Shown here one piece after another: positions 29,061-60,955 of a stretch of 64,000 bases of DNA (its first letter is position 1; each line of letters starts with the position of its first letter). Source of the DNA: Sabellastarte sp. h YS-2021 (lineage: Eukaryota; Annelida; Polychaeta; Sabellida; Sabellidae); NCBI GenBank assembly GCA_964017235.1, contig OZ024927.1:56301293-56365292 (forward strand). Reading direction: 5' to 3'. The notes under the pieces were generated by a model. That model did not search any database. It saw only the letters and a list, made by a program, of their open reading frames with translations, and was not told the origin of the DNA. The translations under genes and the position numbers were made by a program.

Positions 29061-29090
29061 TTAAAGTTTTATAGTAATAATTCATTACAG

Positions 29091-30560: not shown

Positions 30561-30609
30561 CCTTTTGGGTAAGCTGTTATACATACAGAAATGTGTTAAG
30601 CCGTCACAA

Positions 30610-33467: not shown

Positions 33468-35446
33468 TGGTGAAACAACTGATCATTAATGATACCCCTT
33501 TCAAAAACTCTGGACAAAATGTCCGCCTTAACATTGTCTTTACCTGGAATGTGAGTACATTCTACTTTTATGTCATAAGTAGCTAAAAGTAGCCAGATGG
33601 ATCTGGCTACTTGCTGCATGTAACTGTCTCTAATTCTGGCATTTTGCAGTGCATATACTACAGCCTTGTTGTCAACATGTAACCGTATGCACTGGCCCGT
33701 CCAATTCTTGGCAAAGGTTCTAATGGCTATCAATGCGTTTAAAAATTCCAGCTGGGTGATACTGAGACCTTGGGTGGCCAAGACATGCCTTGAAACAGCA
33801 TAGACGTTATTATCCCAGTACAAACCCATGCCAGAGAGGGACGCGTCAACAAACACGTCAAGCTTATTTCTGGCGTCATTGAACATGACCCTGCCATTGG
33901 CCTTAGTCAAAAATTGGACAAACCAAGAGAGATCCTGCTTCATTTCATCATTAAGAACAATACGTCCAGTAGCTTTTCTAAGATTGTTCAGTAATCTATT
34001 CACAAAAATTCTTGCAGCATGCACACAGCGGTGGATATACAATAGCCTTCCCAATAGACTTTGCAATTGTCTCTTAGTGACATATGATCTAGTTAAAAAC
34101 AATCTACAAGTGTCAACAATTTCCAGTATTTTTTCATGTGGAATAGTAAGTTGACGTGCGTCAACATCTACACAGATACCCATACAAGTTAAAACCCTAG
34201 TGGGGGGGACAACCTTCTTGGGGTTTATTGGAACCCCAAGAAACTCGAATAAAGAATACAAGGTGTCGAATTCTTGGTCAGCCTGGTGACGCGGATGAAT
34301 CGCTATGACGTCATCTATATAGTTCCGAACTATGACGCCCTTTGACGCCATGACGTACCGAATGACGTCTGTCGTACGCTGGCACAGAGCACTGCCCGTA
34401 CGCATCCCCATGGGAACGCTAATGTCCAGATACGAGTTTCCTCTCCACTTGAGACCTAACAAGTCATAGTCTAAAGGGTCGACGCGCAAGTTACGGAACG
34501 CCCTTGATACGTCAATTTTCGACAACATAACATCACCCCCCAAATGATCAACAGCGTCAACTATATCCTCAACAGATGGATATTTCAAGATGTACGGTAC
34601 ATCATCATAAACTTCATTTGAGATATGATCATTAACAGCCCGACCCCAAGGGTGACTAAGATTAACAATAACGCGTCTAGTGTCATCAGGTTTTGGTCTT
34701 GACAGAATTGGGGAATAATGGACTTGAAAAGGGAAGTCCTGACAAGGGCCTACAATGGCCCTATTCTGAAGTTCTTTGTCAAAATACGTATCAATATCAT
34801 CAGGGAACTGGACAGCAGAAGGGTGGTTTACAATATGTTCATTAAATACGAATGCATCTCTATTTACACAAAGTGGAAACCCGTATTCCAAATATTCTAA
34901 CAATAGTTTATCATGATAGTTTACACACAAAGCCCTCCAATTGTCGATATTCAAATCAGTGGGTACCTTTACTCTAGCCACTTTATAATTAGGGCAGCCA
35001 GTGGCTGCCACCAATAAGTGGGCGTCACATGCCCATGACAACAAATTGTTTCTATTTAGATTTACAGGAGGCTTGAACAATGGAACAGGAATCGATGCTT
35101 GGCTAATGAAACCGAACTGTGCATTCACACCATTGTTAAAATCCATGACACCTTTGACAGTATTATGAATGAAACACCAATTGACACCTTTGGTCGAACA
35201 ATTACATAGTTTATCCATAAACTGGGTTTCCAAATGCCCTTTATCATGACTTGACACCTTTGGCACGTCCAAAGAACAAATATTTGCATCAGATGACAAC
35301 TTTTTAACAATTGCATACCCACTGGTTACATTTAATGTGATTTTTGACAGAAAATTATGTACAAGGTCAGAACCACTGGCAGTGGCCTGATGAGAATTAG
35401 AATTTACTAGTCTATTGGTATTAATTTTTCTTACAGTACTTAAAGT
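33413..35446 (-). CDS. Ngaro ORF2, reverse transcriptase / RNase H
   Basis: Polymerase ORF of the intact Ngaro. Counting from the TTG at 35299 (628 residues): an N-terminal extension; RT blocks 'RRVIVNLSHPWGRAVND' near 208, 'KIDVSRAFRNL' near 261 and 'SALCQRTTDV' near 303; catalytic 'NYIDDVIAI' with YIDD at 327-330. RNase H has all acidic residues: D485 in 'FVDAS', E518 in 'TQLEF', D543 in 'HVDN' and D593 in 'VKADILSR'. There is no upstream ATG: the frame stays open for 49 codons back to the gag TGA and on into gag. Translation therefore probably needs stop-codon readthrough, reinitiation or splicing. The 3' end overlaps the recombinase frame by 55 bp. No inactivating change seen. Confidence 0.92.
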   Translation of the reverse strand, partial: TLSTVRKINTNRLVNSNSHQATASGSDLVHNFLSKITLNVTSGYAIVKKLSSDANICSLDVPKVSSHDKGHLETQFMDKLCNCSTKGVNWCFIHNTVKGVMDFNNGVNAQFGFISQASIPVPLFKPPVNLNRNNLLSWACDAHLLVAATGCPNYKVARVKVPTDLNIDNWRALCVNYHDKLLLEYLEYGFPLCVNRDAFVFNEHIVNHPSAVQFPDDIDTYFDKELQNRAIVGPCQDFPFQVHYSPILSRPKPDDTRRVIVNLSHPWGRAVNDHISNEVYDDVPYILKYPSVEDIVDAVDHLGGDVMLSKIDVSRAFRNLRVDPLDYDLLGLKWRGNSYLDISVPMGMRTGSALCQRTTDVIRYVMASKGVIVRNYIDDVIAIHPRHQADQEFDTLYSLFEFLGVPINPKKVVPPTRVLTCMGICVDVDARQLTIPHEKILEIVDTCRLFLTRSYVTKRQLQSLLGRLLYIHRCVHAARIFVNRLLNNLRKATGRIVLNDEMKQDLSWFVQFLTKANGRVMFNDARNKLDVFVDASLSGMGLYWDNNVYAVSRHVLATQGLSITQLEFLNALIAIRTFAKNWTGQCIRLHVDNKAVVYALQNARIRDSYMQQVARSIWLLLATYDIKVECTHIPGKDNVKADILSRVFERGIINDQLFHHCTWWPVNGCHFYPNVFI

Positions 35447-36673
35447 TCACTTGACCTTGTCCTTTCCTTGGTCCCCAGTCCTACGCCTCAAGCAATCCTG
35501 AGTTTTATGATAAAAGTAACGTCCCACTTCCTTAAAACAGTAGGAACATGCATGCTTCCAAATTTGGCCCCCTACCACGTGATCAGATGAAAATTTACAG
35601 TCGTTCTTGTTGAAGTCCTCACAAATCTTATCTTTTGCTGCACCTTTATTGTCCCTGGTGTTGGTGGGATTCGACTTTGCAGGGATGACACGAGCTGTAT
35701 TCCGGATCCGGATTTTCTCGACCATATCCGGACGCCTCCATGTAACTTTCCCTCGCTCCATGTCCTGTAGTAGGACCATATGCGCGTGGCGAGCTGTCAA
35801 CCAGTTGGTTTCAAGAGCATCCTGTAACAGATGGCGACCATATTCGAGCATATTGTTCCGGACAGTGTTACTGTGCTCCTCCTGGATGCATCCCATAAAC
35901 CCAATAAGGAACTGGATGGGGGAGAGGTCCTTGTATTCTGGGAGGTTTCCCCCCGCACCAGGGAAGCAATGATGGTGGGGCCAGGGGATCTCCAGTTTTA
36001 CTGAGTTGTCCCCAGCCCTGTGCAAGCCCGACTTTAACTTTTTACCTGGTTTGTGGTGAGAAGATCTTGCCTGCCCCTGTAGCTTCAACAGTTGCCTCTG
36101 TACTTTCCTCTGTGTGGCGTCATCTTGCTTCAAAAACTGCATGGAGGGCTGAGCATCTGACAATTCAGTGTCTGATATGTCAGATAGATGTGAATCTGAT
36201 GGTTTCGAGGTGAACCTGGAGTCCTCCTCGTCCGATGAGTCAGCAACAGACTGATGCGTCGCCCTTCTGACGTGTTGACGCCCTGCCTTCCTAGACAGCT
36301 TACCCTCTGCTACTGGGGAGCTGTGCACGAACTGTGACGCTGACACTATGGGGTCTTGCTGGTTAATTTTCTTCTCTAGCTGCTCATTTTTGTCCTCTAG
36401 GTCCTGCATTTTTCGTAAAATTAAATCCAACTTAGTGTCCAAGTTATTCGTGGGCCCGGGGTGGGCCCCATCCCCAAGGATCTGATCTGAGCGCGAAGCC
36501 TTGTTTCCTCTGTCCATTTGCTGTACTGAGCGGTGTGTTGCATTCACAGAGTCCTCTTGATCAGCTGACATAGCTGGAGCACTGAGATTGAATAAGCGTT
36601 TACATCTATTCCCTACAGGTCGAGAATGTTTTTTATCACACTTGGAACAGTAAGCCAGATTTTGAGATGCCAT
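35447..36673 (-). CDS. Ngaro ORF1, Gag-like protein
   Basis: A 408-residue Gag-like protein expected to package element RNA. The start ATG at 36673 lies 78 bp inside A1. The N-terminus has a Cys/His cluster (C9, C12, H16, C24 in 'YCSKCDKKHSRPVGNRC'), also seen in decayed copy 1. Residues about 85-105 look coiled-coil ('LILRKMQDLEDKNEQLEKKI'), followed by acidic and basic low-complexity sequence. The C-terminus carries a zinc-finger-like cluster ('ICEDFNKNDC', then 'HACSYCF', 'YHKTQDC'). The reading frame ends at a TGA (35447-35449) and continues open, in the same frame, into RT. Capsid assignment is by position and homology to other YR elements. Confidence 0.88.
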   Translation of the reverse strand: MASQNLAYCSKCDKKHSRPVGNRCKRLFNLSAPAMSADQEDSVNATHRSVQQMDRGNKASRSDQILGDGAHPGPTNNLDTKLDLILRKMQDLEDKNEQLEKKINQQDPIVSASQFVHSSPVAEGKLSRKAGRQHVRRATHQSVADSSDEEDSRFTSKPSDSHLSDISDTELSDAQPSMQFLKQDDATQRKVQRQLLKLQGQARSSHHKPGKKLKSGLHRAGDNSVKLEIPWPHHHCFPGAGGNLPEYKDLSPIQFLIGFMGCIQEEHSNTVRNNMLEYGRHLLQDALETNWLTARHAHMVLLQDMERGKVTWRRPDMVEKIRIRNTARVIPAKSNPTNTRDNKGAAKDKICEDFNKNDCKFSSDHVVGGQIWKHACSYCFKEVGRYFYHKTQDCLRRRTGDQGKDKVK

Positions 36674-36750
36674 GATACACTAAAACACTAAAATTTCTTA
36701 TAAAATTAGTCCTTATGTAAATTCCACAATTGCTTTTAAATTCCACAATT

Positions 36751-48280: not shown

Positions 48281-49359
48281 TGTACCATTAATGGTTTGGC
48301 TGGGGGGTGTGTCCAGGTACAGAGATCACTTGTAGCAGTTCAAAACACTTTCTTTCAATTTCACTAATTTATTTCTCACAGTATTTATTCCAAATGAGAG
48401 TACCAAAACACAGTAAATGATAATCCAAATAGTTGAGCACAATTAATTCCAGCAAAAATAAAACACAATTGATTCCAATAAGATTGACAATTAATTTTCG
48501 GCAAATTATATTAGTAATCACTTTGACAGCTCTTTCCCAGTTGATGAATTACTTCTATGCCAAAGCTAGCTTCAGTGCTGTAGGGGCACATATTTATAGG
48601 GAACAACAAGGACATATATAGATAGGTAACATGCTAGGAAGGAAACAAAGAATAGCTGACTAGATAGAAAACAAGGCAATGTCATGGTCAGATAGACAAC
48701 AAGGAGGGACTTACAAGAAAGGGGAAGGTTGTTGTGTAGCCAGATAGAAGGGAATAGCATGCAATGTTGAGGCCAACTGCTCTAATAAGGCAGGGCCAGG
48801 AGGAAGGTAGAGGCTAGATATATTTATGAGAAAGTAATGTGAAGGTAGTTTAAGTAGGGAATGCTTGAAGGTAAAGGATGCATTAGTGAGGTGGAAGGAC
48901 ACAATTTACTGAGAAGGAAGGTCACTAATAAAGGCCAAGATAGTTCTTAAAATGTCAGGGTTTTTACATAGGAAATAAATATAATGCTAAGGTTATTTCT
49001 ATAAGTTTAAGGTTAGCTTGAGCAAGGACTGTAAGTATTAATTAGTGCTGGTCAGTATTGGCCAGGAAAAACAAGGGGAGAAGAGAAAAGCAGCACAGCT
49101 GACTTTGTAAACAAAGATGAGTAGGATGCTGGGAGAGAGATTAGATAATACATGCAGGGAGATTTCTAGCATTGCAACTAATTAGCAGTGTGCCCCTATA
49201 CTTACACTAGCTTGGCAAAGTAAAATATTCTCAAAGTAAATTTGTAAAGAATGATTCTAAATTAATTCAAAATGTTGTTAATACTTTAATTGGTAAATTA
49301 TTTCTATCAAAATCTAAATTATTTTAATTATTTAATGAATGAAATTGGGCCGTGGTACA
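48281..49359 (-). repeat. 3' LTR
   Basis: 1079 bp, identical to the 5' LTR except at six single-base positions that I could find (for example A/G at 48323, C/A near 48587, A/G near 48744). Confidence 0.97.
48368..48389 (-). terminator. Polyadenylation signals in 3' LTR
   Basis: Two sense AATAAA hexamers at 48389-48384 and 48373-48368, downstream of the TATA box and so placed to end an R region. Confidence 0.55.
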
Positions 49360-50091
49360 CACCGACGGTTTAAAAATCACTTCATCCTTGAAGTGTGTAC
49401 AACAAGGAAGACAAGTAAACAATGATAAATAAATACAATAAAGTTAATACAAAACTTATTATACAATGTAATACTAATCGGTTATAATACAAAGAGGTAG
49501 CAAAGTGTAGGCACAGATGAATAAGGATATACATATGAAATATAAATACATAAACTATAAGATGATTAAAAGTGCCCACAATTTGAAAGACTTCATTATA
49601 TTGCACCAGTTATGAAAATACTTAACAGTGCAGACAAATCAGCATCATGAAAATTACTTTTAATCATTACCTCAATTAATAATGCAATAAGTTTTGATGT
49701 GCACATTAAGAATTTAAATTTGAGGCACATGACACAATAGACACTAAATAGTATTCAATATACTGTATATAAATAAGTAATGAGCAAAGTTTAATACAAG
49801 ATAAATACAATAGAGGGAGACATATTAGTACAGTATGCAAGATAAATACAATAGAAAATGACATCTTAAAAGTTTAATACAGCACTCATGATAGAAGAAA
49901 ATGGCTTAGTAGGACATGAATACATGGCAGCAAAATATGAATAAAACATAGTAATTTAAAAAAAAAAAAAAAAATGAAGTGCACATCATCATGAAAAGAA
50001 AACGAAATGCAGTTTACAATGTAAAAGATGGAGTTTTGATAAAAATGAAAGGCAGAATGGGTCTTGAAACAATGAAAAGGGGATATGATTC
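49360..50091 (-). other. Untranslated 3' region before the 3' LTR
   Basis: AT-rich, with a 17-A run (T on the sense strand) near 49958. A clear polypurine tract next to the LTR is not obvious: the sense sequence just before the LTR is 'aaaccgtcggtg', with 'aaggatgaag' 20 bp further away. Confidence 0.5.
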
Positions 50092-50607
50092 CTAAGTTTT
50101 GTGGATGGATAAGAAGAGGAAATAATGTTGGAGATGATACTCAAGTGCGTCTGGGAATGAGGTGAGGAGCTTAATGTGTGGGTTTAAAGTACAAGGGATT
50201 TGAACAGAGTTACAAAGGGGGATTTTTGTGACATGGGTGATGAATGAAAATATGTTGAAAGTTGGGAAGTGTGTCTGAAGGGTTTGCATGTTAATAACTA
50301 CAGAGTCAGAATTGATGGCCATTAAAGTTGGAATTTTAAATGTAGGGAGATTATTTGAACTTAGAGATGTGAAGGATGAGGTGTTAGGACTGTTAGTGAG
50401 GGAGGGGTTAGGTTGGGAAATGGCGTCAGTAATATCTTGGAGGTAGTCGGTAGCGGAAAACGTCGGGGTAGAGGAAGCGGAAGCAGAGGTAGATGCGGAG
50501 TCTGATGTGGCTGTGGTCCTGGTTTTCTTTGGGGAGGGTGCGGCCATAGTGTCAGTTGATGATGTGGATGAGGTTAGCAGGGATCTTAGGACTGTATGGT
50601 CTTCCAT
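50092..50607 (-). CDS. ORF-B: Ser/Thr-rich accessory protein of unknown function
   Basis: 171 residues starting MEDHTVLRSLL. Residues 12-85 are dominated by Ser, Thr and Ala, with a small basic patch 'APSPKKTRTT' that could be a nuclear localisation signal. The C-terminal half (about 88-171) is a normal-complexity, Leu/Phe/His-rich region ('THFPTFNIFSFITHV', 'LEYHLQHYFLFL') that could fold. No recognised family. It lies after ORF-A and about 730 bp before the 3' LTR. The ready-made splice acceptor supports real expression. Confidence 0.6.
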   Translation of the reverse strand: MEDHTVLRSLLTSSTSSTDTMAAPSPKKTRTTATSDSASTSASASSTPTFSATDYLQDITDAISQPNPSLTNSPNTSSFTSLSSNNLPTFKIPTLMAINSDSVVINMQTLQTHFPTFNIFSFITHVTKIPLCNSVQIPCTLNPHIKLLTSFPDALEYHLQHYFLFLSIHKT

Positions 50608-50610
50608 CAG

Positions 50611-50645
50611 CTAAAGTGAAGAATGAGAAAAAAAAAAAAAAAGAG
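50611..50645 (-). other. 3' splice site with polypyrimidine tract before ORF-B
   Basis: Sense strand has an uninterrupted T-run, then ctcattcttcactttag (AG at 50612-50611), three bases before the ORF-B ATG (50607). It is the strongest acceptor of the element. Confidence 0.65.
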
Positions 50646-50714
50646 CACAAAAGAAATTGTATGAGGTAACTATAAGGGAAGGCTTTGATATGGAGGGATG
50701 CTAGTGAAATGGGA

Positions 50715-51152
50715 TTAGAAAAAGGGGGATGGTTTTAGAGGTTTTAACATGCTAATGTAGGCCTGTTTGTCAACCCAGGGCCCGCTGTCGTCACTCTCCT
50801 GGTCCCAGTTTAGGTAGTAGGACTGAAAGACTGGCTTGTCTGCCTTCATTTCGTCCTCTCCGTCGTATTCGTCTGTAGAGGGGAAGTCATTGACATTGAT
50901 CTCCTCCAGCGACGGCATGCTGGAGGTAGAGCTGCTTAGCTCATCATCACCGAAGTGTGATTCCGTCCTAGTTGATGAGACGTCCTCATCTATGTTCATG
51001 CATTCCAAATCGTACATCAGTATGTCTGGCGCCTCATCATCGTCATCACTGTGGGCAGCATATTCTAGGATGGTTTCTTCAATCGGGTATGGGGACTGAC
51101 CATTCAACCATCTGGTGATGTGGTCTTGGGTTTTGATTATCAAGCGGGGCAT
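50715..51152 (-). CDS. ORF-A: acidic accessory protein of unknown function
   Basis: 145 residues from the ATG at 51152, chosen because it follows a strong 3' splice site. The open frame extends further upstream to 51278 but has no reason to start there. The N-terminus is basic/hydrophobic ('MPRLIIKTQDHITRWLNG'), and the rest is strongly acidic with Asp/Glu/Ser runs ('AAHSDDDDEAPDIL', 'STDEYDGEDE') and a Trp/Tyr-containing C-terminus. No known domain. Position between env and the 3' LTR matches where complex retroviruses keep regulatory genes. An acidic activation-domain role is possible but is only an inference from composition. Confidence 0.65.
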   Translation of the reverse strand: MPRLIIKTQDHITRWLNGQSPYPIEETILEYAAHSDDDDEAPDILMYDLECMNIDEDVSSTRTESHFGDDELSSSTSSMPSLEEINVNDFPSTDEYDGEDEMKADKPVFQSYYLNWDQESDDSGPWVDKQAYISMLKPLKPSPFF

Positions 51153-51154
51153 CT
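51153..51154 (-). other. 3' splice site directly before ORF-A
   Basis: Sense 'cccattatttacag|ATG': the AG at 51154-51153 touches the ATG of ORF-A. Confidence 0.6.
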
Positions 51155-51449
51155 GTAAATAATGGGTTGTAGGACAGGTAAGTGACATGAAATGTGGAAG
51201 AACATGCACAGATGAAATCACTAATTGCATTATACTATGTAAGGCATGATGGGTTATATATACACGTGTTAGATACATTACTATACATATTTATAAACAG
51301 TTTATACAGTTATACACAGTTATATACAAACATGCAGGGATATACATACTTATATAGCTATACACTAAGTCATGCAAACATGGAGTACTAATACAAGACA
51401 ATACAGCTCGAGCAACAAATAACATTTGTGCAAATGGTGGCTACTGGGG

Positions 51450-53861
51450 TTAAGCACCAATTGAATCTTCAGCATCATGTGCTGGATTGTGATAGATACA
51501 AGTACTAGACTGACATTGTTGGATAGTTTGTGGCTTAGTAGACAACAACCACTTGTGAATCTCAATGTACTCACCGAAAGTACATGCTATGAGTTGAATT
51601 TCATTCAGGTTTTCTAAGACTTTTCTTGTTTTCAAGATTTTAGAAATTGGAACATTGATTTTGCAAGGCAAAGTAAGCTTGTAGTCATCTTCTGTTTTTA
51701 AAATTAAACCATTCCATGTGACAGTGATAGTCAAAAGGTACCGAGAGATAGATACCTTCGGTGCAAGAGCGGTTGAAGTCTCTACTCTCAAATCCTTAGC
51801 TATTTGTCCTGTGTGAGATAAATGTATGGCAACATAATCATTTGCTCCAAAGAGTGTCATGCTAATCTTAGTATGTGGTACCCTTTTGCCAGTTATCTTT
51901 CTTAATCTTAAACAAATGATACAGAGGGCAACTAAACATGCAAGTATGATTAAAGGTATAAGGTGATATGGGGTCATGCTAGCTTCGTTAGTTTGGGCTT
52001 TCTGTGTTGTGGTTAGCAGGAAATCCAATGCATGTGCACTTCTTACAAGAACTAAAAGTTTACAATAAACATTTGTAGACAATCCTAAAGCCACCATCAC
52101 AAGTACTAGATTAATAAATGTAAGAAATGTCACGCTACTACTTATTTCTGGTTTGACCATCATACCAAGTTCACTAGTTAGTTTTGAGGTTTTATCAGAG
52201 TATAACTTTCCTTTAGCATTTATATTCTTGACAATACGTCTTAATGACAGTTTAACACTTTGTTCCCTTTTAACAACATCATCAAATTCAGAAGTTAGGA
52301 TATTAACTTCGGGGATTTTTGGAAAAACTGGTTTTGAGAAAAATGATTTTGCTGTTAAGTTGAATAAATCAGTATTGGTTTTATAGAAATTTACTAAGGC
52401 TGCCAGATTGAGAGAGTGATTGATCGTTGGTGTTGTTAACCCATCACAATTTTCCAAAGTAGGTGGGATAAAGAAACTTTGTCCCTTTAAGGAACAAGCA
52501 CAGGGCAGTTGTACAATACAGAGTTTACATGGAGTAACATGTAATGGGGCTTTGCTAGGGCAGGATTGTATCCAACTAGTATCTGAGCTGGACACTAAGT
52601 AGGCATTTTCTGTGATGGTTATTACATGGGATTCTGAAGTGTTTGATTTTGGTAAATATGAAACAGAACAAAACTGGGCTACTGATCTTGGTTGGTCATA
52701 AAATAATGCTGTAAGGCAATTTGGATTACTACTTTCTATCATAGTCAATGCTTGATTGCATCTTTTAAAGTGATTACCAGTGCAATACTGGTATTCGCTT
52801 TCAGAGAGCAAAGTATAGAACAATTTATCACTACTAATAGCAAGATAAGGTTTAAGAATGTCAATAATAGTTCTGTCTTCTTTGTCAGCTGCAACTGGGA
52901 TAGGGATACTGTTGACACGGTAGAGTGTGAATGCAGTTGTTGTTGTTGTCACCGGCATTCTGACTTTGATGAAAAGTTTGTAATTATCCAGTTTGTACAC
53001 AATGTCTTGAAGGTGATAATAAAATCCAGTTTCAGTATGAGTCAGTTTAAATGGGCCAGTTTTTGAAAGTTCATATCCGATTGTATCCAAAGCATAGCGA
53101 AGATCTTGTGGTGGAATAAAGTAGTATGGTAGATATCCCTGAAGGAGGGTTTGGATTGCTTGCTCAGTATGAAGGAGATGAGTCTTGACATCAAGCAGTA
53201 GACCGGTGTACTGGGCTCCATAGATGTGAAGAATGTTTGTTAGGCGTGTGAATGAGAATTCATCTTTGATAGCACGGTTCCAGAGGTTTGCGGCCAAGTT
53301 GGTTGCATCTGAAGTTAATTTTACTGCCTGTTTTAAAAGTTCAAATTTCTTATCAGCTTTGATAATGTAGGACTGAAATGCCTGTGTGACAGCGAGAACA
53401 TCTTTATTGTTATCTGCATTGTTTCTGTTGATCTGCTCTATTTGTTTTGCCAAAATTTTGGTGTCTCTTTCAGTGGAGACTCCAAACAGTGACTTTGCGA
53501 ATCTGCCAACAAATCCTAATAAGGCACGTCGACTTCTAGTCTGGCTGGCATGCTGCAACATTTCTTTGATGTTTTTCTCAGCATCATGGACATCTTTTCT
53601 TAGCCTGTCATGTTGGTTGATGTAAGAACGAATTGTGGGACAAAAATGCTGTGTAGTTAAAGTGTCATTTGGCAGTCTTGAAGGGAAGTTTCCACAATAC
53701 AGATCAGATTTGGGCAGCGGGCCTTCTTCGAGAGACACAACAAATGTTTGATGCCATACACTGTGGGCATTATCCAAAATACCCTGTTTATGAAATGTCA
53801 CTCCACAATTGTCATGTCGCCATAATCCTCTCTTGCTCTGCATTTCCCATAGGAGAAGCAC
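51450..53861 (-). CDS. env: Env: fusion-type envelope glycoprotein
   Basis: An 803-residue open frame. A furin-type site RSRR (109-112) is followed by a hydrophobic, Gly/Phe-rich fusion-peptide-like segment (113-127). A predicted helical region rich in Ile/Asn/Lys (130-200), a Cys-rich ectodomain (Cys near 360-472) and N-glycosylation sequons follow. A membrane anchor lies at about 577-600, a second hydrophobic segment at about 634-652, and a long tail of about 150 residues ends the protein. This order resembles baculovirus F-like envelopes of errantiviruses. The open frame has no signal peptide: one is readable at 53902-53850 in a different frame, starting with the ATG next to the splice site, so a small indel probably separates it from the body. 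Description only; function is inferred. Confidence 0.85.
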   Translation of the reverse strand: MLLLWEMQSKRGLWRHDNCGVTFHKQGILDNAHSVWHQTFVVSLEEGPLPKSDLYCGNFPSRLPNDTLTTQHFCPTIRSYINQHDRLRKDVHDAEKNIKEMLQHASQTRSRRALLGFVGRFAKSLFGVSTERDTKILAKQIEQINRNNADNNKDVLAVTQAFQSYIIKADKKFELLKQAVKLTSDATNLAANLWNRAIKDEFSFTRLTNILHIYGAQYTGLLLDVKTHLLHTEQAIQTLLQGYLPYYFIPPQDLRYALDTIGYELSKTGPFKLTHTETGFYYHLQDIVYKLDNYKLFIKVRMPVTTTTTAFTLYRVNSIPIPVAADKEDRTIIDILKPYLAISSDKLFYTLLSESEYQYCTGNHFKRCNQALTMIESSNPNCLTALFYDQPRSVAQFCSVSYLPKSNTSESHVITITENAYLVSSSDTSWIQSCPSKAPLHVTPCKLCIVQLPCACSLKGQSFFIPPTLENCDGLTTPTINHSLNLAALVNFYKTNTDLFNLTAKSFFSKPVFPKIPEVNILTSEFDDVVKREQSVKLSLRRIVKNINAKGKLYSDKTSKLTSELGMMVKPEISSSVTFLTFINLVLVMVALGLSTNVYCKLLVLVRSAHALDFLLTTTQKAQTNEASMTPYHLIPLIILACLVALCIICLRLRKITGKRVPHTKISMTLFGANDYVAIHLSHTGQIAKDLRVETSTALAPKVSISRYLLTITVTWNGLILKTEDDYKLTLPCKINVPISKILKTRKVLENLNEIQLIACTFGEYIEIHKWLLSTKPQTIQQCQSSTCIYHNPAHDAEDSIGA

Positions 53862-53903
53862 AACAGTAAGACTAGGATGGCTGACACAGTCTTCAGTTCC
53901 ATC

Positions 53904-53906
53904 CTG
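53904..53906 (-). other. Candidate 3' splice site for env
   Basis: Sense 'attgatttcag|G' with AG at 53905-53904, just before an ATG at 53902 and about 100 nt downstream of the pol stop. The position fits a spliced subgenomic env mRNA. Confidence 0.5.
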
Positions 53907-54005
53907 AAATCAATATTAATATTTACAATTTTGCTTCACTGCAACAGTTATATTGAACAGAATACTCATTTTAACACACTGAATAATGAGCTATAAGAAC
54001 TGAAT

Positions 54006-57000
54006 TTAATTATTCTGCTTTTGTCCGGTGACCGGTATCTCATGTGACTTTACATATTCCTTTGCAAATTCATTTAAGTTTTCCTCAGGCTCATATGTCC
54101 TAGCAGTAGGTGGGTACCCTTTCCAATCTATTAGATATTCAATGTCTCCAGCTTTGTTATATCTGCCTTTAATAATTTTGTTAATTTCAAACTCGTCAGG
54201 TCCTAGTTGAGGTTGTTGCATTTGTCCATCTTCTGGTTGTGTCACTTCCGGTTGTGGGCTGTCTGGTTGCGTGTCATCAGACTGATTAGCTTCGGTTCTG
54301 AGCACCGGTGGATCTGCCATTTCAACATCTGCTAAATGGTCTGTATCTGGTCCTCTACTGTCATCCACTTTTACTGGCTCAGGTGGTTTCTCTCGAGTCT
54401 TAGGAATAGTCTGTAGGTATCTTAGTCTGTCAACTCTGCTTAAGTCTTGGGCATCATTTCGTTGTTCTGGCATAAGTTTCTCAAGATCCTGGGGAACAGG
54501 TGGGAGAACAGCTCTGTGATGGAACCTCTTCATTCTGTTGACATGGACTGGATTCTTCAGTGGCTTCAAGTCATGCGCTTGGACAACTTTAAAGTTTGTT
54601 TCACCACTTTTGTCCATTAGAAGGTAAGGTCCAGACCAGTTATGGAACAGCTTTGGACTTCCACCTACATTGATCTCTGGGAAGAAAATCCAAACTAGAT
54701 CACCAGATTCAAATGGCTGATCATTACTAGTCTTGTCATAGCGTTCTTTAATTCTCACTTGGGAACTAGCAATGTTGTTCTGGGCTACTTCTCTGGCACG
54801 GGCAGCTTGTAAGGCATACTCTCTAACAGTTCTAGGTAGAGTTGTCAAAGTTGGCAAAATAGTATCAAGTGGGCAGAACGGCTCTCGTCCAAACATCAAG
54901 AAGAATGGAGAGTACTGAGTGGAATCTATGCAGACTGAAGTATTATAGCCATAACATACTGCTCTGACAAACAAGTCCCAATTCTGATGGTCTCTTGTCA
55001 CATACATGGAAAGGTTCTTTCCTAATGTGGAATGGAATTTCTCCAGGAGTCCATCTGTCTGTGGGTGGTATGGACTGGTGTATATCCTCTCAATGTTGAG
55101 AAGTTTACAGGTTTCTCTTACAATCTCAGATAGAAAGTTGCTGCCTAAGTCACTAAGAAGTTGCTGCGGCGGAGAGTATCTGAAGCAAATTTCATTAACA
55201 AGTATCCTAGCGATGGTAGCTGCTTGGGTGTTTGGCAACGGAAAGGCTTCAACATATCTGGAACTGTACTCGATGAATGTCAAAATGTACTTGTTTCCTC
55301 TGGGAGTACTGGGCATGTGCACAATGTCCATTGCCCATCTTTCATTGGTGGCTGCAGGTGACAATGGTTGCAGTGGTGCCTTGGTGGGGTGGACTGGATT
55401 CTTCCTTGTGTTACACCTTTGGCACGAGAGAACAAAGTTTTTGCAGTCCGTGTACATTCCTCTCCAGTAATATTTGAGACGTAAATCAGAGTAGGTCTTC
55501 TGAGTTCCATGGTGTCCTGCACATAAGTCACCATGCACTGAGGTAAGAACATCAAACTTTAGTTCTTCTGGGACAACTAGGCACGCTCTAACTTCATCAA
55601 CTTGTCTTTGGGGAGAAGACACTTTTCCATCCAAGAGGTGGTACAACACACTGTCCTCAATGAAGTATTGGTCACTTGTAAATATAATATCCTTTTCTCT
55701 CTTCTTGTCAGCTGGTAATGTCCCTTCTTCCAGGTACTTTATCATGGGTCCTGCCATCTTGTCATCGAGTTGACACTTTCTCAGATTCTCCTTGCTCCAG
55801 GTGACTTTGGGGAGTTGTAACTTTGGCTGATACTCTTGTTTTGTCCTCTGTCCTTTTAGTCTTGTCCTCCTTCCTTCAAAGGTGATTGGGGCCACATTGA
55901 CTGCCATACTGCCATCTGTGTCATTTATGAAAATCTTGTCATCTAGTTCTCTGTCAATCACGCTCTCTGGGCTGTCATTCTTTTCTGTCTTGTCCTCATC
56001 TGGGTCATCATATTCTCGTCTACTGAATCCATCTGCATTTCCCAGTTTGTTGCCTGGTTGGTGTCTTATGGAGTAGTTGAACTGTTGTAAGTATGCAACC
56101 CATCGAGCAATGCGTCCTTTGGGTTGTTTTTGATTGAGAATCCACTTTAATGCAATATGGTCTGTCACAATAGTCACATGCACACCTCGGAGGTAAGAAT
56201 CAAAGTGCTTCATTGCTACAATCACAGCTAAACACTCACGTTCTGTTGTACTGAACCTTTTCTCTGCTGGGCTGAGCTTCTTTCCACCATAGCTGATAAC
56301 TCTCTCCTTGCCATCTTGGATTTGTGAAAGTACCATACCAATTGCTTCTGAGCTGGCATCAGTATAGAGTATGTAATCACTGTTGTAATCCGGATAGGCT
56401 AGGATTGGAGCTTCTGTCAGTTTCTTCTTGAGAATTTGAAATGCTTCCTCACAGCTATCAGTCCAGTGAAATGGAGCTTCTCTTTTAGTCAGGTCAGTTA
56501 ATGGTGCTGCGATTTTGGAGTAGTCTTTTATATACTTCCTGTAGTAGCCAACGAGACCGAGGAAGGCACGGATATCTCTTACTTTCCTTGGGGTTGGAAA
56601 TTCCTGAACAGCTTGACACTTCTCTGGTTGGGGTTCTATTCCAGCGGCACTGACGATATGGCCCAGAAAGCGAATACGTTCGCAGCCAAAAATGCACTTG
56701 GGTGGTTTGAGGGTCAGCTTAGCTTGTCGCAATCTTTGGAATACAGCTTCTAGGTTGGAGATATGGTCCTTGAAATCCTTGGAGAACACTATGATATCGT
56801 CCAAATATAATAAGGCGATTTCCCAGTTGAGATTCTGTAGCACACAGGTCATGAGGCGACTGAAGCAGGCAGGTGCGTTGGTTAGGCCAAAACTCATGCG
56901 ATTGAATTCGTAGAGTCCATCGTGGGTGACGAATGCAGTGTATGGTTTTGATGATTCCGCGATTGGCACTTGGTGATATCCAGACTGTAGATCAAGTGTT

Positions 57001-58022
57001 GAAAAATACTTTGCTTTAGTTGATCCAAGACTCTCCAGACAGTCAGAAATTCTCACCAAAGGAAAATTGTCAACAATAGTCTGGTGGTTCTGCATTCTAT
57101 AATCAATCACCATCCTATAAGTTCCATCAGCCTTGGACACAAGCAGGACTGGACTTCCAAATGGGGACACACTGGGACGTATGATACCATCTTCCAAGAG
57201 TTGTTTCACTTGCTGGGATATCTCCTTTCTTAGCTTAGGGTTGCTGCGGTACGGCGAGGCCTTGAAGGGTCTTGCATCTTCCTTCAATTTGATTTCAAAC
57301 TCAAGAACGTCTGTGCATCCTAACTTATCACCCTTCTTAAGAAACACATCTGAGTAGTCCCACAACAAAGAGAGAAGTTCATCAATTTGCTCAGAGTTGA
57401 AAGTACTGTTGCTCAGGTCAAACAGGTCTGAGAACTCTTTTGGTGGCTGGAACCGTACCTTCTTCTGTACAGGAGCTGTACTGTTGACACTCAGGCTGGG
57501 TTCCATGACTTCTGAGATCTGGTCTGCAGGATGTAGTCTCTCAGCAATGGCTACACGTGTGCCTTGGATCAGCAACTTTCTTGTGGCATCCGGGTTAAGA
57601 ATTCTTACAGGTACCCATGGTTTGTCCTTATCAATGGTCACTAGAGAACATGCAACAGCTAATCCTAGGTTTGCAATTGATCTATGACTCGTAAGTATAG
57701 CTAGTCCTGGGATATGTTGACCTGTGACTTTTGCCCAAATAACTATTTCACTCAGTGGGTCAACATAAATGTCTTTTGGAACTTTCAGGACATGGTCTTG
57801 TTGTGGATACACACATCTTTTGCCAAAATTGATTATCATTTTTGCTTTCTTTAAGAAATTGTATCCTAAAATAATGTTATATGGAAGAGCAGGAGAATAG
57901 TAGGCCTTAATGCCATACTGGTGACCTTCTGCAATGATGGTAATGTGAATTTCCTGTTTGTAAGTAGTATAAGTTCCATTTATTGCTCTAGCTGAAAGAT
58001 TTTGTTTTACTTCTTTCAAATT
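54006..58022 (-). CDS. pol: Pol: RT, RNase H, integrase, chromodomain
   Basis: Counting from the TTG at 58019 (1337 residues). 47-56: protease C-terminal strand ('YNIILGYNFL'). RT about 240-420: 'RMVIDYRMQN', 'FSTLDLQSGYHQVPI', 'FGLTNAPACF' and catalytic YLDD at 405-408. RNase H about 548-665: D553 in 'YTDASSEA', E593 in 'TTERECLA', D620 in 'VTDHIAL'. Integrase: H2C2 zinc finger (H829, H836/837, C866, C869), then D898, D957 and E993, an exact DD35E spacing, and a GPY-like 'WSGPYLLM' near 1128. Residues 1275-1328 form a chromodomain ('FEINKIIKGRYNKAGDIEYL', 'DWKGY', 'TYEPEENL') that in chromoviruses targets integration to histone marks. No internal stop after 58022. Upstream TAG separates it from the protease active site. 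Confidence 0.95.
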   Translation of the reverse strand, partial: NLKEVKQNLSARAINGTYTTYKQEIHITIIAEGHQYGIKAYYSPALPYNIILGYNFLKKAKMIINFGKRCVYPQQDHVLKVPKDIYVDPLSEIVIWAKVTGQHIPGLAILTSHRSIANLGLAVACSLVTIDKDKPWVPVRILNPDATRKLLIQGTRVAIAERLHPADQISEVMEPSLSVNSTAPVQKKVRFQPPKEFSDLFDLSNSTFNSEQIDELLSLLWDYSDVFLKKGDKLGCTDVLEFEIKLKEDARPFKASPYRSNPKLRKEISQQVKQLLEDGIIRPSVSPFGSPVLLVSKADGTYRMVIDYRMQNHQTIVDNFPLVRISDCLESLGSTKAKYFSTLDLQSGYHQVPIAESSKPYTAFVTHDGLYEFNRMSFGLTNAPACFSRLMTCVLQNLNWEIALLYLDDIIVFSKDFKDHISNLEAVFQRLRQAKLTLKPPKCIFGCERIRFLGHIVSAAGIEPQPEKCQAVQEFPTPRKVRDIRAFLGLVGYYRKYIKDYSKIAAPLTDLTKREAPFHWTDSCEEAFQILKKKLTEAPILAYPDYNSDYILYTDASSEAIGMVLSQIQDGKERVISYGGKKLSPAEKRFSTTERECLAVIVAMKHFDSYLRGVHVTIVTDHIALKWILNQKQPKGRIARWVAYLQQFNYSIRHQPGNKLGNADGFSRREYDDPDEDKTEKNDSPESVIDRELDDKIFINDTDGSMAVNVAPITFEGRRTRLKGQRTKQEYQPKLQLPKVTWSKENLRKCQLDDKMAGPMIKYLEEGTLPADKKREKDIIFTSDQYFIEDSVLYHLLDGKVSSPQRQVDEVRACLVVPEELKFDVLTSVHGDLCAGHHGTQKTYSDLRLKYYWRGMYTDCKNFVLSCQRCNTRKNPVHPTKAPLQPLSPAATNERWAMDIVHMPSTPRGNKYILTFIEYSSRYVEAFPLPNTQAATIARILVNEICFRYSPPQQLLSDLGSNFLSEIVRETCKLLNIERIYTSPYHPQTDGLLEKFHSTLGKNLSMYVTRDHQNWDLFVRAVCYGYNTSVCIDSTQYSPFFLMFGREPFCPLDTILPTLTTLPRTVREYALQAARAREVAQNNIASSQVRIKERYDKTSNDQPFESGDLVWIFFPEINVGGSPKLFHNWSGPYLLMDKSGETNFKVVQAHDLKPLKNPVHVNRMKRFHHRAVLPPVPQDLEKLMPEQRNDAQDLSRVDRLRYLQTIPKTREKPPEPVKVDDSRGPDTDHLADVEMADPPVLRTEANQSDDTQPDSPQPEVTQPEDGQMQQPQLGPDEFEINKIIKGRYNKAGDIEYLIDWKGYPPTARTYEPEENLNEFAKEYVKSHEIPVTGQKQNN

Positions 58023-58236
58023 CTATTTTAATGAAGGTATTTGGTCAAATAAGCATGGACCGACAATTGAATGATTTGCACCAGAGTCGAGTAGAGCTTC
58101 TACACTTATGTCCATAATTTTTATGTTCAATTTACATTCATCTTCTTGCAAGCAGTTATTGACCTTAACACTAGAGTTTGAGTTCTTAGTAGCTTCCCTG
58201 CTCCGTCCCCAGTTGGGAACAGGGGCTTTTAGTTTC
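58023..58236 (-). CDS. pro: Protease N-terminal segment, ends at in-frame TAG
   Basis: The -1 frame after the slippery site runs 71 codons and contains the aspartic protease active site 'VEALLDSGANHSIVG' (Asp at 58088-58086). It stops at TAG (58025-58023). The same frame continues open immediately afterwards into the rest of protease and RT. So the catalytic Asp-Ser-Gly lies on one side of the stop and the ILG-type flap/strand on the other. Either a recent nonsense mutation or a readthrough codon. Confidence 0.8.
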
Positions 58237-59455
58237 CCTGAAACTTCCTTTGTGGGCCAGGTGACGGGCTCCTAAATCTTCCATTTGACATCCTGGCTCT
58301 ATTGGTCCCATTGTTGGAGGGCTTGTACTGCTGGGCTCTGCATTCCCTCTGGACATGTCCAAGTCGTCCACAGTTCCAGCAAGTCGGTGGCTTTCGGGTT
58401 GAAGTCTGCGGGCTTGAACTTGTTGGTGAGGACTTCCAGGTTCTCTGCCAGGGTGCTGGGTTGCTTGACCACTGCCTTCGAGGAGCTGGATGGGAAGTTC
58501 TAACCTGCTGATCCATCTTAGTTGCCAGGGAGTCGAACTTCTCAGCGAGCGATTCCAAACTGTTCTGAAGAGATTTGGTGTGCTGCTTCAGAGCATCGTG
58601 GGAGTCACTCATGCTTGAATTGACTGCCATCACATTCCCCATGTAGGAAGGAAGAGTTAAGGTGTTCTGGGCCTTTAGGGCTGACTCGATGTGTCTGGCT
58701 TTAGTGGTCAAGTCCTCAAGTCCATTGAAAGGCAGGTGCTGCATGACTAACGTCTTTACCTCAGGTAGTAGTCCATTTATAATCAGGGTCATCTGGAGGT
58801 TGTTGTCGTAATGGTAATCTGCCATCTTGGACTGCGCGTCTGTGATATATTCATCAACAGACTCACCTTGTCTCTGTATCCGGGCCAAAATTGCCATCTG
58901 CCTCTGTAGCTGGGTGTGAGCTGCTGCTATGTACTTCTCACGGAATGCTGCTTCCAGGGCCTGGTAGTCTTCCTTGACCTGGGGCTGCAGGGAGTTAAAC
59001 CAGGTCTCTGCACTTCCTGTCAGAAGCAGGCCTAAGAGGGTGCATCTGTCATTGCCTTGGATACCTCCTAGGTTGGCATACCTTTCAAAGTTATGCCACC
59101 AACAGGTAGCAGTTTCTGGGTGCAGGCCATTGAAGGATGACGGTTTGAATGCCACTGCAAGAGGGTTGATGTTAGGCTGCACTGGATTCATATCTGGGTT
59201 TGCGTCTGCGGGTTGTTCCTGCGCTGGTGCGACGGGTGGTGCTACGGGTGGTGCTACAGGTTGTGCTGGCGGTGGTGCTACCGGTGGTGCTGGTGGCGGT
59301 GCTACAGGTTGTACTGGCGGTGGTGCTTGTTGTTCCATTAAATTTTCTTCACGATTTAAATAATTTTGCTGCTGATTTTTCACAGTTATTTCTGAATTTC
59401 TAACTACTAGTTTAGGTTTTCTACAGGGTAATATTCTAAGATTATAACTGCACAT
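58229..59455 (-). CDS. gag: Gag polyprotein
   Basis: Structural polyprotein. From the ATG at 59455 it is 408 residues. An internal ATG at 59338 ('MEQQAPPPVQPV') would skip 39 residues and may be the real start. A Pro/Ala-rich tract (about 40-85) precedes the capsid-like region, whose retrotransposon Gag signature includes 'CWWHNFERYANLGG', 'LLLTGSAETWFNSL' and 'FREKYIAAAHTQLQRQM'. A single CCHC zinc knuckle lies near the C-terminus ('CWNCGRLGHVQREC', C-x2-C-x4-H-x4-C), followed by a basic Arg/Ser tail expected to bind RNA. The TAA stop comes directly after a GGGAAAC slippery heptamer, and pol lies in the -1 frame. Confidence 0.93.
   Translation of the reverse strand: MCSYNLRILPCRKPKLVVRNSEITVKNQQQNYLNREENLMEQQAPPPVQPVAPPPAPPVAPPPAQPVAPPVAPPVAPAQEQPADANPDMNPVQPNINPLAVAFKPSSFNGLHPETATCWWHNFERYANLGGIQGNDRCTLLGLLLTGSAETWFNSLQPQVKEDYQALEAAFREKYIAAAHTQLQRQMAILARIQRQGESVDEYITDAQSKMADYHYDNNLQMTLIINGLLPEVKTLVMQHLPFNGLEDLTTKARHIESALKAQNTLTLPSYMGNVMAVNSSMSDSHDALKQHTKSLQNSLESLAEKFDSLATKMDQQVRTSHPAPRRQWSSNPAPWQRTWKSSPTSSSPQTSTRKPPTCWNCGRLGHVQRECRAQQYKPSNNGTNRARMSNGRFRSPSPGPQRKFQGN
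58232..58238 (-). other. Gag-Pol -1 frameshift slippery site
   Basis: Sense G GGA AAC, in gag phase, followed immediately by the gag TAA. A 6-nt spacer then precedes a structure at 58225-58194: CCCC/GGGG outer stem with inner GTT/AAC, and an alternative TTCCC/GGGAA pairing that would make an H-type pseudoknot. Shifting one base back opens the protease frame. Confidence 0.85.
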
Positions 59456-59543
59456 TGAAAGGTTCTATTGTACTACTATGATGCACACATTTGTTAATAT
59501 TGAAACACTAAAGAATAGCGCCACACACTGTTTAGTCACATAA

Positions 59544-59786
59544 TTATAATAAAAGTTGCATTTCAAGATATATAAGCAGAACTTCCAAAGCACAATAATC
59601 GTCCTTGGCATAGATTACTAAACTTCTCTTTGATGGTTCATCAATTATAATACTGTCTTTATGATTTGCTACCCATTGTAATTCATCCATTACAGTACTG
59701 ATATTTTTTTCACTATATTTCTCTAAATAATCATATTTTACAGTTACTAGGTTCTGTCCTTGATAAAGTTTATAACCAGGAGCCAT
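59544..59786 (-). CDS. Leader ORF of 80 residues, unknown function
   Basis: An ATG-initiated small ORF between the primer binding site and gag, just downstream of the candidate splice donor, so it would be present only on unspliced RNA. The product is mixed acidic/basic with several Tyr ('VKYDYLEKYSEKN') and a hydrophobic C-terminus ('LEVLLIYLEMQLLL'). No known domain. It may be a genuine accessory protein, a translation-regulating upstream ORF, or chance; the length alone does not decide. Confidence 0.45.
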   Translation of the reverse strand: MAPGYKLYQGQNLVTVKYDYLEKYSEKNISTVMDELQWVANHKDSIIIDEPSKRSLVIYAKDDYCALEVLLIYLEMQLLL

Positions 59787-59810
59787 TATTGCATTATAAA
59801 ATTGTCTCTC

Positions 59811-59816
59811 ACCCTG
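59811..59816 (-). other. Candidate leader 5' splice site
   Basis: Sense CAGG|GTGAGA with GT at 59812-59811, about 60 nt downstream of the LTR and upstream of the leader ORF and gag. It is a good match to the animal donor consensus. It could join the leader to acceptors before env, ORF-A and ORF-B. Confidence 0.5.
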
Positions 59817-59858
59817 TATATTCTGTTGCTGTTCAACTGCTGTCCACTAGAATTTCTG

Positions 59859-59876
59859 TACCCAGCATCTCCACCA
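59859..59876 (-). other. Primer binding site
   Basis: Immediately after the 5' LTR, the sense strand reads TGGTGGAGATGCTGGGTA. TGG complements the tRNA CCA end. The implied tRNA 3' acceptor strand CATCTCC would suit an alanine-type tRNA, but tRNA identity is an inference. Confidence 0.75.
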
Positions 59877-60955
59877 TGTACCATTAATGGTTTGGCTGGG
59901 GGGTGTGTCCAGGTACAGGGATCACTTGTAGCAGTTCAAAACACTTTCTTTCAATTTCACTAATTTATTTCTCACAGTATTTATTCCAAATGAGAGTACC
60001 AAAACACAGTAAATGATAATCCAAATAGTTGAGCACAATTAATTCCAGCAAAAATAAAACACAATTGATTCCAATAAGATTGACAATTAATTTTCGGCAA
60101 ATTATATTAGTAATCACTTTGACAGCTCTTTCCCAGTTGATGAATTACTTCTATGCCAAAGCTAGCTTCAGTGCTGTAGGGGAACATATTTATAGGGAAC
60201 AACAAGGACATATATAGATAGGTAACATGCTAGGAAGGAAACAAAGAATAGCTGACTAGATAGAAAACAAGGCAATGTCATGGTCAGATAGACAACAAGG
60301 AGGGACTTACAAGAAAGGGGAAGGTTGTTGTGTAGCCAGGTAGAAGGGAATAGCATGCAATGTTGAGGCCAACTGCTCTAATAAGGCAGGGCCAGGAGGA
60401 AGGTAGAGGCTAGATATATTTATGAGAAAGTAATGTGAAGGTAGTTTAAGTAGGGAATGCTTGAAGGTAAAGGATGCATTAGTGAGGTGGAAGGACACAA
60501 TTTACTGAGAAGGAAGGTCACTAATAAAGGCCAAGATAGTTCTTAAAATGTCAGGGTTTTTACATAGGAAATAAATACAATGCTAAGGTTATTTCTATAA
60601 GTTTAAGGTTAGCTTGAGCAAGGACTGTAAGTATTAATTAGTGCTGGTCAGTATTGGCCAGGAAAAACAAGGGGAGAAGAGAAAAGCAGCACAGCTGACT
60701 TTGTAAACAAAGATGAGTAGGATGCTGGGAGAGAGATTAGATAATACATGCAGGGAGATTTCTAGCATTGCAACTAATTAGTAGTGTGCCCCTATACTTA
60801 CACTAGCTTGGCAAAGTAAAATATTCTCAAAGTAAATTTGTAAAGAAAGATTCTAAATTAATTCAAAATGTTGTTAATACTTTAATTGGTAAATTATTTC
60901 TATCAAAATCTAAATTATTTTAATTATTTAATGAATGAAATTGGGCCGTGGTACA
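59877..60955 (-). repeat. 5' LTR
   Basis: 1079 bp. TGTACCACGG... at 60955 and ...AATGGTACA at 59877 in the sense direction. Flanked by CTAC at 60956-60959, matching 48277-48280. The sequence also holds small open frames that recur in the other LTR and have no coding signature. Confidence 0.97.
60187..60196 (-). promoter_or_regulatory. TATA box in 5' LTR
   Basis: Sense-strand CCTATAAATA, a good TATA element, with a plausible start about 30 bp downstream near 'cagcactgaagc'. The same box is in the 3' LTR at 48591-48600. It would drive the full-length RNA. Confidence 0.6.

What the first reader, a model, noticed from the sequence alone, without database searches (positions are those of the whole stretch)
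48281..60955. Complex-retrovirus-style LTR element combining a chromodomain integrase with an Env and spliced accessory ORFs
Seen: paired LTRs, gag, -1 pol, DD35E integrase ending in a chromodomain, furin/fusion-peptide env, then two more ORFs and a leader ORF. Known: chromodomain Ty3/Gypsy elements (chromoviruses) usually lack env, while env-bearing Gypsy elements (errantiviruses) usually lack a chromodomain and accessory genes. The combination in one recent 12.7-kb insertion suggests an undescribed lineage of endogenous retrovirus-like elements.
Basis: partly seen in the sequence, partly recalled or inferred. Interest (0 to 1): 0.92.

Follow-up and report, generated by a model that had tools for sequence, protein, structure and literature searches.

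The report
Chromodomain retrovirus-like element with accessory genes
This is a recently inserted but damaged endogenous retrovirus-like element from an unnamed, probably animal, genome; its relatives there combine an integrase that may read chromatin marks with a viral entry protein and small extra genes, apparently made by splicing as in complex retroviruses.

Summary
On the minus strand, 48281-60955 is a 12.7-kb LTR element: 1,079-bp LTRs with 6 mismatches and a 4-bp target duplication. It has gag, a -1 frameshift site, protease-RT-RNaseH-integrase, a C-terminal chromodomain (Pfam 3.6e-10) and a Baculo_F-type Env (7.2e-10). This copy is broken in pol and at the start of env. Two near-identical copies elsewhere keep both 3' ORFs open.

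In the host genome (1.79 Gb; 72 env matches) I fetched pieces beside 10 divergent env loci (9 families). Integrase plus chromodomain lies upstream in 9 of 10, down to 28% Env identity. Integrase and Env distances correlate, r=0.98, or 0.88 without the 28% families. ORF-B recurs in 7 of 10 loci, ORF-A in 3 of 10 by tblastn, the leader ORF in 4 of 5. A donor precedes the leader ORF in 6 of 6 loci, four families.

The parts
59877..60955 (-). 5' LTR (1,079 bp, TGT...ACA)
   Evidence: 6 mismatches against the 3' LTR; GTAG target duplication
48281..49359 (-). 3' LTR
   Evidence: the LTR edge is where the alignment to the C7 and C3 copies ends
59861..59876 (-). primer-binding-site-like sequence TGGTGGAGATGCTGGG directly after the 5' LTR; tRNA not identified
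   Evidence: similar motifs in L056, L057, L060 and a variant in L061
59807..59815 (-). predicted major splice donor AGG|GTGAGA (last exon base 59813), between PBS and leader ORF
   Evidence: second of 601 GT sites by score, tied at 8.9 with 51575; best donor within 200 nt of the leader in 6 of 6 loci, four families
59544..59786 (-). leader ORF, 80 aa, no convincing Pfam match
   Evidence: 0 of 2,000 shuffles as long; protein found in 4 of 5 divergent 5' pieces (three families), 39-60% identity (alignment)
58229..59455 (-). gag with CCHC zinc knuckle
   Evidence: Retrotrans_gag 1.6e-8, zf-CCHC 1.4e-5
58232..58238 (-). slippery heptamer G GGA AAC directly before the gag stop (-1 frameshift)
   Evidence: downstream RNA fold not significant (z -0.46)
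58026..58271 (-). protease part of pol, -1 frame relative to gag, ended by an in-frame stop in this copy
   Evidence: RVP E 0.0042, 17.8 bits, below Pfam's cut-off of 20.7; relative P0009 has this part joined openly to RT
54006..58022 (-). pol: RT, RNaseH, integrase (H2C2, DD35E, GPY/F-like WSGPY), chromodomain
54048..54191 (-). chromodomain (pol residues 1278-1325)
   Evidence: Pfam Chromo 3.6e-10; HP1 5.1e-9; translation checked
53903..53904 (-). predicted env splice acceptor, first exon base 53903; start ATG at 53902
   Evidence: score 5.2, rank 51 of 822 AG sites; one of 4 of 228 internal ATGs with such a neighbour
51450..53909 (-). env, Baculo_F type: furin-like RSRR, hydrophobic ALLGFVGRF, hydrophobic segments, conserved tail; signal peptide out of frame in this copy
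51450..51887 (-). Env tail domain, predicted beta-rich fold, weak resemblance to mononegavirus matrix proteins
   Evidence: pLDDT 81-93 per ten residues up to residue 110 of 145; against:
50715..51152 (-). ORF-A, 145 aa, acidic (34 D/E, 9 K/R), starts right after a predicted splice acceptor (score 6.0, rank 38 of 822)
   Evidence: open in C7 and C3 copies; relatives P0030, L037, L041, L055
50092..50607 (-). ORF-B, 171 aa, S/T-rich, starts 3 nt after a predicted splice acceptor (first exon base 50610; score 9.0, rank 8 of 822)
   Evidence: open in C7 and C3 copies; 7 of 10 divergent loci; alignment

Best explanation
This is one damaged copy of a diversified lineage of endogenous retrovirus-like Ty3/Gypsy elements whose gene set is leader ORF, gag, pol with a chromodomain integrase, an F-type env, ORF-A and ORF-B. 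Shown by sequence: LTRs, frameshift site, domains, a donor-like site before the leader in four families, acceptor-ATG pairs, co-divergence of integrase and Env, and protein-level conservation of ORF-B and the leader ORF (of ORF-A less widely). Inferred: unspliced RNA makes Gag and, by -1 frameshifting, Gag-Pol. One donor downstream of the PBS is joined to acceptors in front of env, ORF-A and ORF-B, giving three spliced mRNAs, as in complex retroviruses. Env is cut at RSRR and drives membrane fusion between cells. The chromodomain steers integration to chromatin with methylated histones. ORF-A, acidic and produced by splicing, is a transcriptional activator or other regulator. Env's tail domain works at the inner membrane, perhaps as a matrix-like adaptor to Gag.
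For: Domains. LTRs and target duplication; the C7 copy has its own duplication TATC and LTRs with 1 mismatch and 1 gap in 1,080. Env family: 72 matches in the host genome. Integrase and chromodomain upstream of env in 9 of 10 fetched divergent loci. Integrase and Env distance matrices, one locus per family: r=0.983 over 9 families, 0.877 over the 7 without the 28% families; 0 of 5,000 permutations reach either (with a near-duplicate locus included 0.976 and 0.948). ORF-A and ORF-B without indels or stops in two other copies, while the adjoining 732-nt non-coding stretch has indels of 1 to 13 nt. ORF-B tblastn 1e-6 to 1e-31 in 7 of 10 loci (6 of 9 families), ORF-A 4e-4 to 1e-11 in 3 of 10. Leader ORF 1e-17 to 2e-28 in 4 of 5 divergent 5' pieces. 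Donor in 6 of 6 loci. Of 228 ATGs inside the element 4 have an acceptor scoring 5.2 or more within 3 nt, and three of these are the starts of env, ORF-A and ORF-B (the threshold was set after seeing the sites).
Against: No transcript was seen; splice sites are predictions from simple home-made matrices, and the best-scoring donor of all lies inside gag (58867). The env acceptor-ATG pair was found in only 3 of 9 divergent pieces, two of them of one family. ORF-A is not detectable by tblastn in 7 of 10 loci; in L039, L043 and L053 only an acidic ORF in the same place after an acceptor speaks for it. ORF-A and ORF-B were not found in the two 28% families or in L047; the leader ORF was not found in L058 and not sought in the 28% families. 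The codon-usage test was uninformative. No accessory protein matches Pfam or a solved structure convincingly. This copy itself is broken in two genes.
Confidence: 0.8

Rival explanations
1. An env-bearing Gypsy element of a kind already reported across metazoans, in which a chromodomain and extra ORFs are known but not in the papers that I could see.
For: PMC13172572 (passages) cites Chary & Hayashi 2025 for envelope-carrying gypsy elements across metazoan phyla and 289 representatives; that paper is not held. Env is Baculo_F type.
Against: Passages of the 2009 review PMC2774666 put chromodomain elements in one branch and the animal retroviruses of Ty3/Gypsy in the other, and found no chromoviruses in cnidarians, molluscs, protostomes and basal deuterostomes at that time. 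Eight paper searches that bore on the question listed no element with chromodomain, env and accessory genes (mostly listings, not all opened).
Confidence: 0.3
2. A chromodomain retrotransposon that picked up env and ORFs by chance in this one copy, so the combination is an accident.
For: The neighbours of most pol relatives (P0010, P0011, P0013-P0029) are unknown, so env-less relatives could exist.
Against: Integrase-chromodomain beside env in 9 of 10 divergent loci, co-divergence r=0.88-0.98, near-identical 3' ends with ORF-A and ORF-B in C7 and C3.
Confidence: 0.02
3. The extra ORFs are not genes: ORF-A, ORF-B and the leader ORF are open by chance or are regulatory sequence.
For: Codon usage gave no clear frame for ORF-B; no known domain.
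Against: ORF length beyond shuffles; protein-level similarity in divergent elements (ORF-B 20-31% over whole alignments and up to 43% in tblastn, leader 39-60%); acceptor next to the start codon.
Confidence: 0.07

Closest known systems
Chromoviruses (chromodomain Ty3/Gypsy, e.g. the vertebrate V-clade; names from PMC2774666 passages)
   Same: gag-pol order, integrase with a GPY/F-like module and a C-terminal chromodomain
   Different: Env and three accessory ORFs; that review describes chromoviruses as retrotransposons, apart from the branch with animal retroviruses
Errantiviruses / env-bearing Gypsy elements of insects and other metazoans
   Same: F-type Env (Baculo_F); spliced env of errantiviruses is recalled
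   Different: Chromodomain integrase, leader ORF and two further ORFs behind acceptors, long Env tail with a folded domain
Complex retroviruses of vertebrates (foamy viruses, lentiviruses, deltaretroviruses; recalled)
   Same: Predicted leader donor feeding env and accessory genes; small 3' genes, one of them acidic
   Different: RT nearest to Ty3 among solved sequences (379 bits, against 122 for the best retroviral entry, Pr125Pol); chromodomain; F-type Env
Jingchuvirales glycoproteins and elements that captured them (PMC10084718 passages; Anakin named in PMC12440569)
   Same: The Env tail model's two best viral matches are a Riboviria protein and the glycoprotein of Culverton virus (Aliusviridae, Jingchuvirales)
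   Different: E-values only 2.4e-3 and 4.4e-3; ectodomain is Baculo_F type; no sequence match was shown
Bdelloid rotifer LTR elements with env and other extra ORFs (PMC5408684 passages)
   Same: Retroelements with Env or other ORF3 genes in an invertebrate
   Different: The paper states that no chromodomain was found there

Membership tests
Chromovirus | Protease-RT-RNaseH-integrase order of Ty3/Gypsy | tested here: met
   relative P0009 has all parts in one frame
Chromovirus | Chromodomain at the C-terminus of integrase | tested here: met
   Pfam 3.6e-10; 6 of 8 sequences of alignment A2, window included, P0012 and P0013 ending before or at its start; 9 of 10 genomic loci, Pfam in 4 of 4 tried
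Chromovirus | RT inside the chromovirus branch of a Metaviridae tree | not tested
   No named reference RTs available; only a tree of 22 pol proteins without names
Errantivirus | Baculovirus F-like Env | tested here: met
   5 of 9 members; 2 of 2 of the 28% families
Errantivirus | RT inside the errantivirus clade | not tested
   no reference set
Errantivirus | Integrase without chromodomain (recalled as usual, not strictly defining) | tested here: not met
Complex retrovirus (Retroviridae) | Accessory genes expressed by alternative splicing from a leader donor | tested here: inconclusive
   Predicted donor and acceptors; no RNA data
Complex retrovirus (Retroviridae) | Retroviridae-type RT | tested here: inconclusive
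   Ty3 is the best solved relative, retroviral entries far behind; no tree
Mononegavirus matrix protein (Env tail) | Matrix fold | tested here: inconclusive

The most novel reading that the evidence does not exclude
An independent origin of complex retroviruses outside Retroviridae: a chromodomain Ty3/Gypsy lineage with an Env able to carry it between cells, a leader protein, an acidic spliced trans-regulator (ORF-A) and ORF-B, whose Env has its own cytoplasmic matrix-like domain shared with jingchuviral (negative-strand RNA virus) glycoproteins.
Probability: 0.3. Interest if true: 0.92.

Novelty: new variant of a known kind. Interest (0 to 1): 0.72.

Why it matters
Chromodomain targeting and Env-driven spread have been treated as features of different Ty3/Gypsy branches. 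A lineage that has kept both through deep divergence, together with accessory genes, would be a second, comparable case of the complex-retrovirus way of life. It would let one ask directly whether accessory genes and leader-donor splicing arise whenever a retroelement becomes infectious, and how heterochromatin targeting fits with cell-to-cell spread.

Tried and rejected
Scans of viral contigs with pol and env gave no relatives; genome contigs gave one 42% relative in a contig filed as a TM6 bacterium. The whole-Env model is poor (mean pLDDT 38.7), so only the tail domain, folded alone, is used. A BFVD search with the poor model ranked a Sichuan mosquito mivirus glycoprotein first (E 1.3e-5, TM 0.11); I give it no weight alone. 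Env against solved sequences gave nothing or one chance-level row. Foldseek of the tail against PDB gave no match below E 0.1 and no matrix protein in its 50 rows. I first took the PBS for tRNA-Ala from memory; the C7 copy differs there, so I drop it. RNA structure behind the frameshift site is not significant. Codon usage was uninformative, and its env row was in the wrong frame. The first ORF-A/B comparison ignored gaps and is void (lower part); replace it. The ORF-A composition was read in a wrong frame; one search replaces it. L062 did not contain the 5' end of the C3 copy; the script stopped on it and finished the C7 pair. Ten loci hold one near-duplicate pair; one search repeats the test without it. 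Rfam and tRNA scans of the window gave nothing. The copy number of integrase and of each accessory ORF genome-wide was not obtained.
Full report
What is there. The element lies on the minus strand. Its LTRs are 48281-49359 and 59877-60955, 1,079 bp each, with 6 mismatches and no gaps, TGT...ACA ends and GTAG on both sides. In order from the 5' LTR: a primer-binding-site-like TGG sequence, a predicted splice donor, a leader ORF of 80 aa, gag, pol, env, ORF-A, ORF-B, a non-coding stretch and the 3' LTR.

Gag and pol. Gag has a Retrotrans_gag match and a CCHC knuckle. Pol has RT, RNaseH, H2C2, rve and a chromodomain at residues 1278-1325. GGGAAAC ends exactly at the gag stop codon and pol lies in the -1 frame; that GGGAAAC is a retroviral slippery site is recalled. 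No significant RNA structure follows. In this copy an in-frame stop lies between protease and RT; in relative P0009 that place is open.

Chromodomain. The last 71 residues match HP1, CDYL2, LHP1 and CBX proteins among others. At the positions of HP1's methyl-lysine cage (recalled) the window has F, W and Y; the divergent copies mostly have Y, W and Y. Binding to methylated H3K9 is an inference from that.

Env. Baculo_F matches at 7.2e-10 and in 5 of 9 members of the Env alignment. RSRR followed by ALLGFVGRF gives a furin-like site and a likely fusion peptide. Eight public proteins are relatives, 43-98% identical; only the 7,995 candidates sharing most words were scored. The signal peptide in this copy is out of frame with the rest because of a short deletion relative to P0001; in the C7 and C3 copies the frame is longer, 832 against 819 codons. 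After the hydrophobic segments near residues 589-617 and 646-664 of P0001 comes a conserved tail of about 140 residues. In the five relatives that reach it, positively charged residues follow the last segment, which by the positive-inside rule suggests a tail inside the cell; the number of membrane passes is not settled.

Other copies. The host genome has 1,785,957,881 bases in 647 contigs. Its name is not given; that it is an animal is my inference. A 201-bp internal stretch occurs four times, the window included; one of these places is rearranged. The copies on C7 and C3 match through the fetched 3' end at 98.7%, up to the LTR edge, so they are separate insertions. The two LTRs of the C7 copy differ by 1 mismatch and 1 gap in 1,080, with the duplication TATC. 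ORF-A and ORF-B are open and without indels in both, with 2-4 substitutions each, while the neighbouring 732-nt non-coding stretch has indels of 1 to 13 nt. ORF-A also occurs as P0030 (98%) with the same longest-contig length, 668,318, as the 98% Env relative P0001. The ENA proteins may come from this same host or a near one, so they are not independent.

Divergent families. An Env search of the host genome gave 72 matches from 62 scored of 447 candidates, 27-100% identical; several rows can belong to one element. I fetched pieces beside 10 of them, chosen over the identity range; two of the ten (54%, C18 and C7) are 99% alike, so they stand for 9 families. Integrase and chromodomain were found upstream in 9 of 10, not beside the 68% locus; Pfam confirms Chromo in 4 of 4 tried, and Baculo_F in both 28% families. 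With one locus per family, integrase and Env distances correlate at 0.983 over 9 families (8 divergent ones and the window) and at 0.877 over the 7 without the 28% families; 0 of 5,000 permutations reach either. In a tree of 22 pol proteins the window is with P0009 (SH-aLRT 95) and then P0012 (90), whose contig lengths, 15,743 and 370,767, equal those of the Env relatives P0003 and P0002; that these are the same contigs is an inference.

Accessory genes. ORF-B is found by tblastn in 7 of 10 divergent 3' pieces (6 of 9 families; 1e-6 to 1e-31) and ORF-A in 3 of 10 (4e-4 to 1e-11); in three more pieces (L039, L043, L053) an acidic ORF sits in ORF-A's place right after an acceptor. Neither is found in the two 28% families or in L047. 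The leader ORF is found in 4 of 5 divergent 5' pieces (three families, 39-60%; not in L058) and at 100% in the C7 copy; 15 columns are invariant in six sequences. ORF-B alignment: five invariant columns in six sequences, most similarity at the C-terminus. None has a convincing Pfam or PDB match.

Splicing signals. AGG|GTGAGA at 59813 is second of 601 GT sites in the element, tied with one other; the best (58867) lies inside gag. In the window, the C7 copy and four divergent loci (three families) the best donor within 200 nt before the leader ORF is AGG|GTGAGA, AGG|GTGAGT or ATG|GTGAGT. Acceptors directly precede the starts of env, ORF-A and ORF-B (ranks 51, 38 and 8 of 822); 4 of 228 internal ATGs have such a neighbour, three being these. 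Acceptors beside the ORF-B start score 8.7-13.2 in five divergent loci. For env the pair is seen in 3 of 9 divergent pieces. In L059 the donor follows an ATG, so its spliced genes may borrow that start codon.

How it probably works. Shown: anatomy, homologies, conservation. Inferred: unspliced RNA for Gag and Gag-Pol, three spliced RNAs from one donor, Env-driven spread between cells, chromodomain-guided integration, regulatory ORF-A, membrane-side Env tail.

Known or new. Passages of PMC2774666 place chromodomain elements in one Ty3/Gypsy branch and the plant and animal retroviruses of the family in the other, and found no chromoviruses in cnidarians, molluscs, protostomes and basal deuterostomes in 2009. 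PMC12440569 (abstract and passages) names chromodomain and envelope as separate acquisitions of chromoviruses and errantiviruses. PMC5408684 (passages) reports bdelloid elements with env and extra ORFs but no chromodomain. PMC13172572 (passages) cites Chary & Hayashi 2025 for env-bearing gypsy elements across metazoans; that paper is not held. Eight of my ten paper searches bore on the question and listed no element with chromodomain, env and accessory genes; I saw listings and opened only some papers (PMC4131045 on frogs, for example, was not opened). I call it a new variant of a known kind. The mended correlation (0.88 instead of 0.95 for the core families) does not change my odds.

Noticed in passing
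window 32448-36679, minus: DIRS-like element: tyrosine-recombinase-like ORF 32448-33482, RT/RNaseH-like ORF 33413-35446 and a further ORF 35447-36679; a possibly related fragment lies at 28197-30572 on the plus strand (by eye, no family search).
   Followed up: no
window 5843-7696 minus and 12300-14451 plus: Fragments that look like non-LTR retrotransposon reverse transcriptases (by eye).
   Followed up: no
window 21453-23753: 73-bp tandem array, 31.8 copies; G+C 54% in 22001-24000 against 38% for the window, open over long stretches on the minus strand.
   Followed up: no
G000 C5:21162365-21164497 and C5:21174373-21176505: Two Env genes with equal scores 12,008 bp apart, about one element length: perhaps a tandem pair sharing an LTR.
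   Followed up: no
L038 and P0012: One family (54% Env) has a stop inside its chromodomain in L038, and the public cluster P0012 (13 members) ends at the same place, while the sister copy L052 has no stop there: a common defective branch, or loss of the chromodomain.
   Followed up: partly
L059: The leader donor follows an ATG (ATG|GTGAGT), so spliced genes of this family may take their start codon from the leader exon.
   Followed up: no
L001: A Gypsy pol relative (42%) in a contig filed under a TM6 bacterium genome: probably eukaryotic contamination.
   Followed up: no
window 51450-51887: Env tail domain with a possible matrix-like fold, perhaps shared with jingchuviral glycoproteins.
   Followed up: partly
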